Source of the DNA: a virus | DNA length: 27,696 nt | Direction: 5' to 3' (one strand) | Virus record (IMG/VR): IMGVR_UViG_3300037805_000285 | Span: 1-27,696 of that record | Part shown: piece after piece, positions 4,712 through 9,215 of the stretch | Position numbering within the stretch: the first letter of the stretch is position 1 | Layout: every line of letters begins with the position of its first letter | Notes under the pieces: model-generated | The model's database searches: none | Seen by the model: only the letters and a program-made list of their open reading frames with translations | What the model was told of the DNA's origin: nothing | Made by a program: the position numbers and the translations under genes

Positions 4712-6037
4712 TTATCCTTTTAAGTTATCTAATAGTTGTTGTTGAGTTGCGTCTTTCTGACTCAACGTTTTCATTAATTTATATTCAATATCACCAACAG
4801 TAATATGAATACACCTCACATTATCTTTCTGTCCTTGACGATGTAGTCGTTTGTTAAACTGCTGATACAACTCAAGTGACCAGGTAAAACCGTACCATAT
4901 TAATGTCTTCCCTCCTTTTTGTAGATTTAATCCATGACCTGCTGATGCAGGGTGGGCGAGTAGAAGCTTTATCTCACCTCTGTTCCACTGCTCCACAGCC
5001 TTCCCTTCTTTGTCTAACACAACAGCGTCAGGGAATTTCTTTTTAAGCGCTGTAAGCTCATGTTTGTAGTTGTAGCCTACAAGTAAGTTCTCATCAGGGC
5101 TACTGTCAATAATCTCTTGAAGGGTGTCAAGCTTCAGCTCGTGGAAGTGATGTATTTGACCATCCTCCCCGTAAATATTACCACTACAAAATTGTAGAAG
5201 TTTATTTGAAAGAGTGGCTGCACTCATTGCAGTAATTAACTCACCGTCAAGGTCGAGCAACATTTCCTTCTCAAACTCTTTATATTGTTTAAGAAGCTTA
5301 CCGCTAAGTTTGTTTTCTAAGACTGTTGGTATGAAGTCTGGCAGTTCAAGGTAGTCCTCACTGCTCATACTGATCGCAACGTCTTTAATAAGACTCTGAA
5401 TCTTAGCGGGGGCGTAAGGGTTAATCTCGTAAGACCAACCCATAAAGTCTTTTGTAAAGTATCTGTTTCTAAACGCTGTTATGTTTTTACCAAGACGCTC
5501 ACCTCGATCAAGTAAATATATCTGACTCCACAAGTCCATATATCCGTTTGGAGAGGGTGTACCTGTTAAGAGAACCATCTTGTCGATTAGATGCAGAACC
5601 TTCTTCAGTGCCTTAAATCTTTGCGATGAGTAGGACTTAAACGATGAGCTCTCGTCAATAACCACCATATCAAAATCCCACTTACCTTTTGTTGTCTCAA
5701 TTAGAGCTTTAACGTTCTCTCTGTTGATTAAGTAAATGTCGCTAGATTCTTTCAAACCTTTCAACATATTGGCGCTACCACCAGATAGGTTAGTGAAGCT
5801 CATATACGTAGTGTGTTCCCAATTCTCAGCTTCCTGCACCCACACACTATTACAAACCCTAAGAGGGGCAATAATCAAAACCTTCTCAACATCTTTGTAA
5901 ATCAACTCCTCAATAGCTGTCAGGGTAGTAATTGTTTTACCAAGACCCATGTCAAGAAACAAAGCAGAGTTTTTGTGCTCTAAGATGTGCTTCACACCTT
6001 TATGTTGATACTCGTGTAAGTCGCTTTTATTTAACAC
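4712..6037 (-). CDS. SNF2/SF2-family DNA helicase (DEAD-like ATPase)
   Basis: The protein has 441 residues. It starts with GTG 6037, overlapping the polymerase C-fragment stop by 7 bases, with GAGG upstream; there is no ATG ahead of the first conserved residues. Motifs in order: Q-like HEYQHKGVKHIL (8-19); Walker A DMGLGKT (29-35); motif Ia IIAPLRV (55-61); motif II VVIDESS (125-131); motif III LTGTPSPNG (157-165); then the C-terminal RecA-like domain with motif V HPASAGHGLNLQKGG (362-376) and motif VI QQFNKRLHRQGQ (392-403). These are the hallmarks of Snf2-type ATPases, which translocate on double-stranded DNA and remodel protein-DNA complexes rather than unwind strands. The ~440 length is typical of phage versions paired with VRR-NUC. 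It likely serves replication or recombination intermediates with the neighbouring nuclease and polymerase. Confidence 0.92.
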   Translation of the reverse strand: MLNKSDLHEYQHKGVKHILEHKNSALFLDMGLGKTITTLTAIEELIYKDVEKVLIIAPLRVCNSVWVQEAENWEHTTYMSFTNLSGGSANMLKGLKESSDIYLINRENVKALIETTKGKWDFDMVVIDESSSFKSYSSQRFKALKKVLHLIDKMVLLTGTPSPNGYMDLWSQIYLLDRGERLGKNITAFRNRYFTKDFMGWSYEINPYAPAKIQSLIKDVAISMSSEDYLELPDFIPTVLENKLSGKLLKQYKEFEKEMLLDLDGELITAMSAATLSNKLLQFCSGNIYGEDGQIHHFHELKLDTLQEIIDSSPDENLLVGYNYKHELTALKKKFPDAVVLDKEGKAVEQWNRGEIKLLLAHPASAGHGLNLQKGGKTLIWYGFTWSLELYQQFNKRLHRQGQKDNVRCIHITVGDIEYKLMKTLSQKDATQQQLLDNLKG

Positions 6038-6828
6038 CCTAAATCCTCTAATTTACTGTTTGCTTCATCAATGTACCATTGGTAATTTAAGTCCGCAGGA
6101 ATCTCATCTGGTAAGTCCATCATAGGCTTCGCACCATCTGTCTTAGGCACTTTGTTACCGTTAGTTAGGTAAGACAAATAACCTGTACTCTGCGTTGAGT
6201 AGTACCAGCGCACCACCTTACCAAGGTACTCACCATCGTACTCTCCCCCACCTTTAACTGTGCGCCCAGACACGAACTCGTTAATGTCTTTGCAAGTCAT
6301 AATAGTTTCCGACAAGGGCATAGCGTTAAGTAAATACTCTCTAATAGCCTCGAATATAATAGGAGTTGAGCGCCCTTTCATTAGACTTGTTTTTGTATAA
6401 AGACCTTTAGCTTTAACGTAACCATCGTAAACAGCCACATAGTTATTCACGTCCTTAGCGTACAGACCTTTGTACTCACCGTGCTCCATAACCATACCTG
6501 TGTCTATCTCCCAATCAGCGATAATCGCTTGTGCTAGTTGGAGTTTACTTCTCTCACAATAATACTCAACACCATCTGTGTTTGACGATACAACTCTAAA
6601 GCCTCTCTTATGTAGTTGTTCAATTAACATCAACAACATTAGTTGGCCTGTTAACGTAACTTGTAACATTAAGTCTGGTGAATAAAGCTTAGAATACTTT
6701 GAGCCTAGCTTACCAAAAGAGCCGTTTAATTGAATTTTACCACCTTCGTTGGTGACATTTTGCAAAATTAGCTCTTCTTCAAGATCAACTATTTTTTGCT
6801 TTGTATCTTCCAAACTCATCTCTTCCAC
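6031..6828 (-). CDS. Family-B DNA polymerase, C-terminal fragment (motifs B and C)
   Basis: The protein has 265 residues from GTG 6828, preceded six bases upstream by a perfect AAGGAGG inside the HNH gene. This is one of the strongest ribosome binding sites in the region, so the fragment is translated on its own. It carries polymerase motif B as [16 protein letters not shown] (31-46, Kx3NGxxG type) and motif C as [11 protein letters not shown] (81-91), where the usual DTDS is NTDG. That variant is common, to my knowledge, in this phage PolB subfamily. The exonuclease and motif A are missing and are supplied by the gene at 7449-8555. The first 30 residues ([20 protein letters not shown]) form a charged helix. 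It overlaps the helicase gene by 7 bases and HNH by 44 bases. The two fragments probably assemble into one enzyme (inference). Confidence 0.88.
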
Positions 6829-7459
6829 AAGAACCCTCCTTTTTATTTTTCTTTAACCCAGACTCATAAAGCGCAATACCCTCTTCTAAGGACATTGTAT
6901 TCCCAAGATAGACTCGCTTACCATCTATCACTTTACGAACCATATACGACCCATTACTATGAACACTAATCCCAGTGTGACCTGTTGTATTGTTTAAACG
7001 AGGCTCTTCATTTTTCATCCTATTCTTTTGTGCGTTGAGAGCTTCTTTCAATGATGCAAAGACACCTAAAACCTCTCTATCCCCTTTTGTGCGGACTTGA
7101 AACCCTCCACTTTCTGTTAAGCGTATGCCACCATACCCTGTTGATGAGGTCTTGTAGACTCGTTTGTTATTTGCTTGCGTCTTACGAGAAGCCCAAATAC
7201 AATTTTCAGGTGAATAACCTTTATCGTTATCAACTCGTTCTAATGTATAGTTTTTGTTTGGCTTTAAACCCATATCCAATGTAAAGTTTTCAAACGAGGT
7301 CATCCATCTATCACAAACAGAGACACCTCTCCCCCCATAGTTAACATAAGACACATCATAAGTTTTGTTGCATCGTCTTTTCATGCCATTGTAAGTGTTA
7401 TACAAAGGGTGGTCTTTCACCAAATAACCCTGAACTTTTTTACCTCTTTTATGATACAT
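6785..7459 (-). CDS. HNH homing-type endonuclease with two AP2-like DNA-binding repeats, inserted in the DNA polymerase
   Basis: The chosen start is ATG 7459 (224 residues), behind AAAAGGAAAACA; a longer frame goes back to 7516 but lacks a good site. Residues 17-100 match the HNH family of phage homing endonucleases: [14 protein letters not shown], then [15 protein letters not shown] (38-52), [25 protein letters not shown] (71-90) and KTQANNKR. The order of GGRG/C-RW, L-R-DND/NC-WA/Q--N matches the catalytic beta-beta-alpha domain. Two AP2-like modules follow: [19 protein letters not shown] (108-126) and [18 protein letters not shown] (160-177), each followed by a helix. The gene overlaps the N-fragment of the polymerase by 11 bases and the C-fragment by 44 bases, leaving no room for a separate intron body. 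It is thus a free-standing mobile endonuclease lying between two half-genes. Confidence 0.92.
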
Positions 7460-8555
7460 TGTTTTCCTTTTGAAGTTTGTTTTCCAATTGTACCACAGTT
7501 TTTCTAAGTTCGTCAAGTTCAGCTTTTATTTCTTTCACTCTATGTTTGGCCGCGAGTCTGGTGTCATAAATCTTTCGATACACATCAAGAAACTTCCTAC
7601 CAAACTGTTTAGGGTAGAAGCCAAATTCCAAAATCATAGAGGGGTAGTAGGAGGCAACGTCTGCGTTTCTAAGTACAAAATGTTTGTTGCTCTCAACTAC
7701 AAGTCTCTTCTCCTGTGAGTGTAAGCCACCAATACCTATCTTGTAGGTTGTATCACCGATCACAATTTTCCTGTTGGATAACTCCCTAGGCATCTTAACT
7801 GAACCGTTCGCTCCAACTTCAAACCTCACAGCCGTAATGTCTGTTAGAAGTTCATTCAAGTCATCTGTTTCAAAATAGACGCAAGACGGTGGCTTATACG
7901 TAACTCGATAGTTCTTAGGAAGTTCAGGTGGTTTACCTTTGTACCTCAACTCTTTAACAAACACAGCTTCAGCGATTTGAGCATCAGACTTTGATCTAAG
8001 GTCAGTCCTGTACTGTGCGCTTAACTCGCCACGCAGTTCAATGCGATGTTTAATACTATGATATAAATCGATAGTTGTATCAAGGTCGTTCTCACAGTAG
8101 GCGTTAAGAGTTTCAATCTCCGAGTCTTTTAGTGGGATATGTGGGTCAAAGGGTAAGTCCCATAACTTCTTGCTACCAAGACGAGTACCGTAGTTCTTCA
8201 ATGAAATCATCACAGCAGGGGCAGGTTCTTTGATATCGATGTGATCCCAGTCCTCTGTCATCTCTACTATGCGCCAGTGTGGTACACGGTCTTGGATTAA
8301 CTTCTTTGACTTGTTGTACAAGTCCTTACAAGAGTCACCGTTCAACATACACTGAATCAACGGCATATCATACCTAGATGAGTTATAACCGAATGAGGTG
8401 TAAGAACGCAACACCTTGTGGATGCCTCGCTTATCTTGGGGGGCTAGTTTAGTTTGCGTATCAAATGTAATAAGCTTTCCGCTGTCTAAACCTTTGATAG
8501 CCAATAAGAAGTAATTTGGATAAACTTCAATATCCAAGCAAATTAGTTTTTTCAT
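7449..8555 (-). CDS. Family-B DNA polymerase, N-terminal fragment (3'-5' exonuclease and motif A)
   Basis: The protein has 368 residues from ATG 8555 behind AAAAAAGGATAAAA. Exonuclease motifs are Exo [12 protein letters not shown] (D8, E10), Exo [14 protein letters not shown] (N58, D63) and Exo [12 protein letters not shown] (Y153, D157), so proofreading is intact. Polymerase motif A is DVASYYPS (299-306), the DxxSLYPS variant with the metal-binding Asp. The chain then reads [12 protein letters not shown] into a charged helix ([22 protein letters not shown]) and stops. In full-length relatives motif B would follow soon after; here it sits in the separate gene at 6031-6828. The last codons overlap the HNH start. 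The DNA polymerase is thus encoded by two genes. A group I intron or intein is not supported by the sequence. Confidence 0.9.
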
Positions 8556-8598
8556 TTTTATCCTTTTTTAGTGTGGAACACTTAGTTAATAAAATACT

Positions 8599-8666
8599 CA
8601 CAAAGAAGAATATGGAGGGAGATTGTGGGTGCATTGACTAGATGCGATACCATATTCTTCTTTGTG
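8599..8666. repeat. Perfect 17-bp inverted repeat between SSB and polymerase genes
   Basis: CACAAAGAAGAATATGG at 8599-8615 is exactly complementary to CCATATTCTTCTTTGTG at 8650-8666, with a 34-base centre. Short outer arms CTTAGT (8581-8586) and ACTAAG (8670-8675) extend the symmetry. On the minus strand it follows the SSB stop and is followed by AGTATTTTATT before the polymerase gene, so it could act as a terminator or attenuator that sets SSB output above polymerase. It could also be a cruciform-forming site. Confidence 0.8.
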
Positions 8667-8674
8667 GATACTAA

Positions 8675-8692
8675 GGGGAGAGCTATCTCCCC
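8675..8692 (-). terminator. Short GC-rich hairpin just after the SSB stop
   Basis: GGGGAGA (8675-8681) pairs with TCTCCCC (8686-8692) around a 4-base loop, seven bases after the SSB TAA on the minus strand. Only TTAG follows, so it is a weak intrinsic terminator by itself. Together with the 17-bp inverted repeat it forms a tandem hairpin block. Confidence 0.6.
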
Positions 8693-8699
8693 AAAGAGT

Positions 8700-9215
8700 T
8701 TACAAGTCGTCTAACTCATCAAACTCACCAGCGTCAGCTACTTTCGCGCCGTCACCGAAGCTACCACCTTCTTTAACAAACTGAACACCCATCAAGTTAG
8801 CGTTAATACGCTTACCGAAGTTGTTGTTCTGTCCCCAGCAGTTGATAAGAGCATTTACATAACAACCTGCGTAAATGATGTCGTCCTCCTCTAGGATTGG
8901 AGAACGCTCTCTGTCAATTACCGTTGGTCGTTTGTTGTTAGACGCTTTAACCGCCCACATACCTTGATAACCATCGTATCCTTTTTCATCAAATACTTCA
9001 TCGCCATCTTTGATGAACAACTTAGATGCTGATACTTTAATCTTGTTGTCGCTTTTACAAGTTTCAATCGAAGCCATAATTGCATCGTAAGTAGCTGTAT
9101 CTGTTTTAGGGAATAAGAAGGTAGCTTCATACTTACCTTCTTTACCATCGAACACACTCTTTGAGTATAGTGATGGGAAACTTAGTCTTGCGTTTTTAAT
9201 CATTAAATTTGACAT
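8700..9215 (-). CDS. Single-stranded DNA-binding protein, DUF2815 family
   Basis: The protein has 171 residues from ATG 9215 behind ACAAGGATAAAAAAT. DUF2815 proteins are phage SSBs with an OB fold, comparable to T7 gp2.5. Recognisable family features are the N-terminal IKNARLSFPSLYSKSVFDGKEGKYEATFLFPK (written here as the LSFPSL and YEATFLFPK motifs), the central GYDGYQGMWAVKASNNKRPTVIDR, the YAGCYVNALINCWGQNNNFGKRINANLMGVQF core, and an acidic C-terminal tail (EFDELDDL). The acidic tail is the usual contact for polymerase and other replication partners. The gene has its own promoter upstream and a double hairpin downstream, fitting high, separate expression. The next gene in order is the polymerase. 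Confidence 0.9.
   Translation of the reverse strand: MSNLMIKNARLSFPSLYSKSVFDGKEGKYEATFLFPKTDTATYDAIMASIETCKSDNKIKVSASKLFIKDGDEVFDEKGYDGYQGMWAVKASNNKRPTVIDRERSPILEEDDIIYAGCYVNALINCWGQNNNFGKRINANLMGVQFVKEGGSFGDGAKVADAGEFDELDDL

What the first reader, a model, noticed from the sequence alone, without database searches (positions are those of the whole stretch)
6031..8555. Family-B DNA polymerase encoded by two genes with an HNH endonuclease gene between them
The exonuclease motifs and polymerase motif A lie in one gene (7449-8555). Motifs B and C lie in another (6031-6828). A free-standing HNH gene with two AP2-like repeats (6785-7459) lies between, overlapping both (11 and 44 bases). The overlaps leave no space for a separate intron body, and no intein motifs are present. 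I know split family-B polymerases with mobile endonucleases from T4-like Aeromonas phages; this is a different phage type and a different PolB branch. It could be a functional two-subunit replicase or a recently broken gene.
Basis: partly seen in the sequence, partly recalled or inferred. Interest (0 to 1): 0.75.

Follow-up and report, generated by a model that had tools for sequence, protein, structure and literature searches.

The report
DNA polymerase split by endonuclease gene
A phage's DNA-copying enzyme is made from two genes because a selfish endonuclease gene sits in the middle of the original gene, and relatives show the same break in separate lineages, once even after the endonuclease is gone, which suggests the two pieces work together as one enzyme.

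Summary
In detail: coordinates, motifs and both overlaps are right. On the minus strand a family-B DNA polymerase of the phrog_1252 type lies in two genes (7449-8555 and 6031-6828), with an HNH-type endonuclease gene (6785-7459) between them. Together the halves cover the whole enzyme with every catalytic motif, and each gene has its own ribosome-binding site. No intron or intein was detected; the same search finds T4's intron. The break falls at the tip of the fingers hairpin.

Among about 190 related loci, two other metagenomic phages have the same break. One (L113/L035) carries an orthologous endonuclease. The other (L115/L057) has only a 3' remnant of it, yet its polymerase is still split and as constrained as in intact sisters (dN/dS about 0.1). 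The three split polymerases are not one clade, so the arrangement arose, or was undone, more than once. Split copies carry longer fingers tails than intact sisters.

Best reading: a homing endonuclease split the gene and the halves reassemble as a two-chain replicase. Published precedent: gp43A/B of Aeromonas phage 25, broken at the matching fingers site by a GIY-YIG-type gene. New variant of a known kind; assembly and activity untested.

The parts
7449..8555 (-). polB N half: 3'-5' exonuclease motifs, motif A, first fingers helix (368 aa)
   Evidence: phrog_1252 positions 52-399, E 9e-89; alignment to intact relatives
7452..7544 (-). C-terminal tail of the N half (about residues 338-368) that lengthens the first fingers helix relative to intact sisters
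   Evidence: alignment, census; AlphaFold helix 321-367
6785..7459 (-). free-standing HNH-type homing endonuclease with two C-terminal DNA-binding-like repeats (224 aa)
   Evidence: phrog_374/3377; orthologue in L113, 55% identical; repeats
7465..7469 (-). Shine-Dalgarno AAGGA for the endonuclease, inside the end of the N half
   Evidence: sequence read
6031..6828 (-). polB C half: second fingers helix, motifs B and C, thumb (265 aa, GTG start)
   Evidence: phrog_1252 positions 397-652, E 2e-87
6757..6828 (-). N-terminal head of the C half (about residues 1-24), absent from intact sisters; its first 44 bases overprint the endonuclease tail [11 protein letters not shown]
   Evidence: alignments, same 34-residue head in all three split loci
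6835..6841 (-). Shine-Dalgarno AAGGAGG for the C half, inside the endonuclease gene
   Evidence: sequence read
4712..6037 (-). downstream SNF2-type helicase gene, uninterrupted here; it carries a second endonuclease in some relatives
   Evidence: PF00176 5e-21

Best explanation
A homing endonuclease gene entered polB at the codons for the tip of the fingers hairpin and cut the gene into two. The three genes are translated from one mRNA, each from its own ribosome-binding site, helped by the overlaps. The two polymerase chains then reassemble: each contributes part of the palm and one of the two antiparallel fingers helices, both lengthened by extra tails that came with the insertion. The endonuclease would spread by nicking unsplit polB alleles in co-infecting phages, repair then copying the split arrangement. 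Shown: the gene structure, no detectable intron or intein, the break at the fingers tip, orthologous insertions in non-sister phages, persistence without the endonuclease, purifying selection on both halves. Inferred: co-translation, assembly, polymerase activity, DNA cleavage and the direction of the changes.
For: Both halves cover phrog_1252 without loss. Uninterrupted polymerases in 177 of about 190 fetched loci. Same break with an orthologous endonuclease in L113 and with only its 3' remnant in L115. Break at turn 360-362 between helices 331-359 and 363-390 of the predicted intact relative, pLDDT 92.9. Split loci not one clade: AU p 3e-76 whole, 2e-54 N half, 2e-6 C half. dN/dS of L115/L057 halves against intact sisters 0.08-0.18, intact-intact pairs 0.09-0.15. 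Rfam finds no intron at E up to 10 where T4 nrdB's intron scores 9e-7. A Shine-Dalgarno before the C half in all three split loci, differing in sequence between the window and L113/L115.
Against: No experiment; all sequences are metagenomic contigs. The date of each split is unknown, so dN/dS on a pair mixes time before and after it, and dS is near or above saturation. The endonuclease motif is not canonical HNH and Pfam does not recognise it. DNA identity of the endonuclease between window and L113 is no higher than that of the polymerase, so transfer, if any, is not recent. Heptad periodicity is clear only in the window's N tail (p 0.003), not in the C heads.
Confidence: 0.82

Rival explanations
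1. The gene is recently broken and the phage relies on another polymerase (host or its own).
For: Only one sequence of this exact lineage; the window record is a fragment of 27.7 kb.
Against: Three diverged lineages keep both halves open with all motifs; constraint unchanged; separate strong SD for the C half; no PolA or PolIII alpha and no second PolB in six records up to 45 kb.
Confidence: 0.1
2. The coding sequence is joined after all: a self-splicing intron removes the endonuclease from the mRNA, or a split intein joins the proteins.
For: Phage 25 carries a group I intron in 43B (PMC2993671); jumbo phage MIJ3 has a split PolB with a split intein and HNH gene (PMC6892783).
Against: No intron model at E up to 10 in 5800-8800, control positive; the overlaps leave no room for an intron core; both tails are about 25 residues, too short for an intein N half, with no intein family match; in L115 only about 150 bases separate the halves.
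Confidence: 0.03
3. The split is functional but old and single; the many intact relatives regained an unsplit gene by recombination.
For: Endonuclease in window and L113 has diverged as much as the polymerase; L027 is intact but has long fingers that resemble a healed split.
Against: The tree needs three changes, and intact sisters share the exact 26-residue short form; many independent precise restorations would be needed.
Confidence: 0.2
4. Assembly artefact or chimera.
For: All data are metagenomic.
Against: Three contigs from different metagenomes with the same junctions and the same conserved out-of-frame overlap.
Confidence: 0.01

Closest known systems
gp43A/gp43B of Aeromonas phage 25 (and 44RR2.8t)
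   Same: Family-B polymerase in two genes with an endonuclease gene between; break aligns between T4 gp43 residues 500 and 512, between motifs A and B in the fingers; 44RR is split without an endonuclease, like L115; the two gp43 pieces co-purify and are active (PMC2988022)
   Different: T4-type polymerase and myovirus; seg (GIY-YIG) endonuclease; group I intron in 43B; here a short phrog_1252 polymerase, HNH-type endonuclease, overlapping genes, no intron
NrdA-a/NrdA-b of Aeromonas phage Aeh1 split by MobE
   Same: Free-standing HNH endonuclease splits an essential enzyme, function retained (PMC2988022). From memory and from the title of Crona et al. 2011 (paper not held): assembly uses interaction domains derived from the mobile element, as proposed here
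   Different: Different enzyme and endonuclease family
Phage T4 topoisomerase genes 39/60 with MobA
   Same: Endonuclease insertion split one gene into two working subunits (PMC2988022, PMC5009743)
   Different: Different enzyme; gene 60 also has a translational bypass
MIJ3 jumbo phage split PolB with split intein and HNH gene
   Same: PolB in two genes around an HNH gene (PMC6892783)
   Different: Halves joined by predicted protein splicing there; no intein here

Membership tests
Enzyme fragmented by a free-standing homing endonuclease (genes in pieces) | Two co-directional genes that together encode the whole enzyme with all motifs | tested here: met
Enzyme fragmented by a free-standing homing endonuclease (genes in pieces) | Free-standing endonuclease-family gene between the halves | tested here: met
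   (PHROGs); Pfam silent
Enzyme fragmented by a free-standing homing endonuclease (genes in pieces) | Uninterrupted close relatives and no intron or intein | tested here: met
Enzyme fragmented by a free-standing homing endonuclease (genes in pieces) | Insertion distributed across lineages in a way that implies mobility | tested here: inconclusive
   split loci not one clade, but gains and restorations cannot be told apart and identity is not raised
Enzyme fragmented by a free-standing homing endonuclease (genes in pieces) | Endonuclease cuts the unsplit allele; halves assemble into active enzyme | not testable with these tools
   needs biochemistry
T4-type split gp43 (phage 25 / 44RR) | T4-type gp43 with a GIY-YIG (Seg-type) endonuclease | tested here: not met
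   phrog_1252 polymerase and HNH-type gene; phage 25's endonuclease is a seg gene (PMC2988022) and its N terminus was read
Group I intron | Catalytic core detectable by covariance model | tested here: not met
   control
Split intein | Intein halves fused to the two fragments | tested here: not met
   tails of about 25 aa, no intein family match

The most novel reading that the evidence does not exclude
The mobile unit is larger than the endonuclease: it carries coding sequence for two helices that lengthen the fingers on both sides of the break, part of it overprinted on the endonuclease's own tail, so the element supplies the parts that let the enzyme it breaks reassemble, in place of an intron or intein.
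Probability: 0.35. Interest if true: 0.72.

Novelty: new variant of a known kind. Interest (0 to 1): 0.56.

Why it matters
Characterised split replicative polymerases of this kind are few (I found one in the papers held, in T4-like Aeromonas phages). A second polymerase family, broken by a different endonuclease family at the same structural point, suggests that the fingers tip is where a family-B polymerase tolerates being cut. The series intact / split with endonuclease / split with endonuclease remnant makes the step from parasite to fixed two-subunit enzyme directly testable, and gives a small split polymerase for engineering.

Tried and rejected
Intron: no Rfam match to an intron at E up to 10 in 5800-8800, nor any match in three related loci at E up to 1. 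Intein: tails too short, no domain match. Three split phages as one clade from one inherited insertion: rejected. Raised DNA identity of the element as a sign of recent transfer: not seen for window-L113, slight for the L113-L115 remnant. Coiled-coil clamp from sequence: only the window N tail shows significant heptads. Junction DNA pattern in viral contigs: found only the two known loci; endonuclease profile scan: no further polB insertion. BLASTP between the two endonuclease repeats gave nothing; a shuffled local alignment did. Solved-structure search with the endonuclease: nothing. Crona et al. 2011 is not held.

Full report
What is there. The window is a 27,696-base IMG/VR virus record. 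On its minus strand, among replication genes (primase-like, DUF2800 exonuclease, Enc34-type ssDNA-binding protein, polymerase, SNF2 helicase), lie three overlapping genes: 7449-8555, 6785-7459 and 6031-6828. The outer two are the two parts of one family-B polymerase: phrog_1252 positions 52-399 and 397-652. Against intact relatives the conserved columns are present in one or the other part, and the main difference is in the fingers segment between motif A and motif B. A profile of intact relatives matches solved family-B polymerases, and the predicted structure of one matches KOD, 9N and Tgo polymerases. The middle gene belongs to phage endonuclease families that PHROGs names HNH and has two C-terminal repeats; Pfam does not recognise it.

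Where the break is. AlphaFold on the intact relative L027 (31-sequence alignment, mean pLDDT 92.9) gives fingers of two antiparallel helices, 331-359 and 363-390, joined by a three-residue turn. The split proteins part at this turn. The window's N half is predicted to end in one helix, 321-367, about 18 residues longer than the L027 helix (mean pLDDT 79.6, lower confidence). In Aeromonas phage 25 the known split gp43 breaks between T4 residues 500 and 512, also between motif A (408) and motif B (561).

Relatives. Scans of viral contigs brought about 190 loci with this polymerase. 177 have one open gene; three contigs are split, the window and two others; the remaining exceptions run off contig ends. 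L113/L035 has N half, orthologous endonuclease (55% identical) and C half. L115/L057 has N half, then only the last 66 codons of the endonuclease frame with no start and no nuclease domain, then C half. This resembles phage 44RR, whose gene 43 is split by an untranslated stretch (PMC2988022).

History. On a tree with the fingers linker removed, the three split polymerases lie apart: the window with intact L116 and L026, L057 inside a tight group of intact sisters, L035 elsewhere. One clade is rejected on the whole protein (AU p 3e-76) and on each half separately (2e-54 and 2e-6), and the two halves broadly agree in placement, so they have travelled together. Parsimony counts three changes; one gain with recombinational restorations cannot be excluded, because the endonucleases have diverged as much as the polymerases.

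Tails. Intact sisters have 26 residues between FLxVY and motif B (93 of about 118 measured). The split ones have 76, 67 and 63 (the window value counted from its real start codon), with the same 34-residue C-side head in all three. The first 44 bases of that head are read in another frame as the endonuclease's tail, and this overlap is conserved even where the endonuclease is dead. L027 is intact but has long fingers like the split ones (47), either an ancestor-like target or a healed split. Some distant intact polymerases also have long fingers, so the tails may be native fingers sequence from a long-fingered donor and not born of the element.

Function. No stops in either half in any of the three; dN/dS for L057 halves against intact sisters is 0.08-0.18, against 0.09-0.15 for intact pairs. 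Each gene in the window has a Shine-Dalgarno before it. No second PolB, no PolA and no PolIII alpha in the window or in five related records of 29-45 kb; these records may be incomplete. No intron (control 93) and no intein. I conclude that the two chains most likely assemble into the working replicase. Assembly, activity and cleavage are inference.

Known or new. Papers held here describe one experimentally supported case for a polymerase (phage 25: pieces co-purify and polymerise), plus Aeh1 NrdA and T4 topoisomerase for other enzymes (PMC2988022, PMC2993671, PMC5009743), and a split-intein PolB in MIJ3 (PMC6892783). Searches for a split family-B polymerase with an HNH gene outside these found nothing. 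The finding is a new variant of a known kind.

Side finding. In three relatives (L027, L113/L035, L042) the neighbouring helicase gene carries its own HNH/AP2 gene and, inside the Walker A codons, a 7-base insertion that makes a CTT TGA C stop/frameshift site. The downstream helicase codons remain constrained. This looks like a homing cassette with a recoding signal, comparable to T4 gene 60 and MobA (PMC5009743), and deserves its own study.

Noticed in passing
L027:5476-5502, L113:7196-7222 (=L035:5487), L042:4128-4154: The SNF2 helicase gene next to polB carries a 7-base insertion inside its Walker A codons: GGN CTT TGA CCT NGG NAA AAC in place of GGN CTT GGN AAA AC. CTT TGA C is the release-factor-2 type +1 frameshift site; a hop from CTT to the next CTN would restore DMGLGKT exactly. 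The roughly 400 codons after it are open and constrained in L027 and L035. Exactly these three contigs match the pattern in viral contigs, and each also has a second HNH/AP2 gene inserted at the helicase's 5' end. It looks like a homing cassette with a recoding signal, as with T4 gene 60 and MobA.
   Followed up: partly
L037:5842-5870: Helicase Walker A with a different 9-base insertion containing an in-frame TGA (GGC TGA CTT GGT TTA GGG AAA), no endonuclease gene seen nearby, 413 open codons after it.
   Followed up: partly
L027:4782-5480: The second endonuclease is flanked by two copies of about 40 bases of the helicase start (TATCAAGAAAAAGCTGTTAATCATATCCTAACTACTCAAA), so the insertion supplied or duplicated a new helicase 5' end.
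   Followed up: no
L042:5150-5330: The L042 helicase has a further lesion near its 3' end (frame lost after GGSLIV), so that copy may be dead or misassembled.
   Followed up: no
window 7190-7250: The endonuclease has Arg where canonical HNH has its first His (E/D-R-x-D-N...N-C-x-W), in the window and in L113; whether this family cuts DNA is not established here.
   Followed up: partly
L027 residues 331-390 and census: Fingers length in this polymerase family varies in apparent steps (26, 40, 47-53, 63), 26 to 40 being two heptads; could reflect hairpin growth by one heptad per helix.
   Followed up: no
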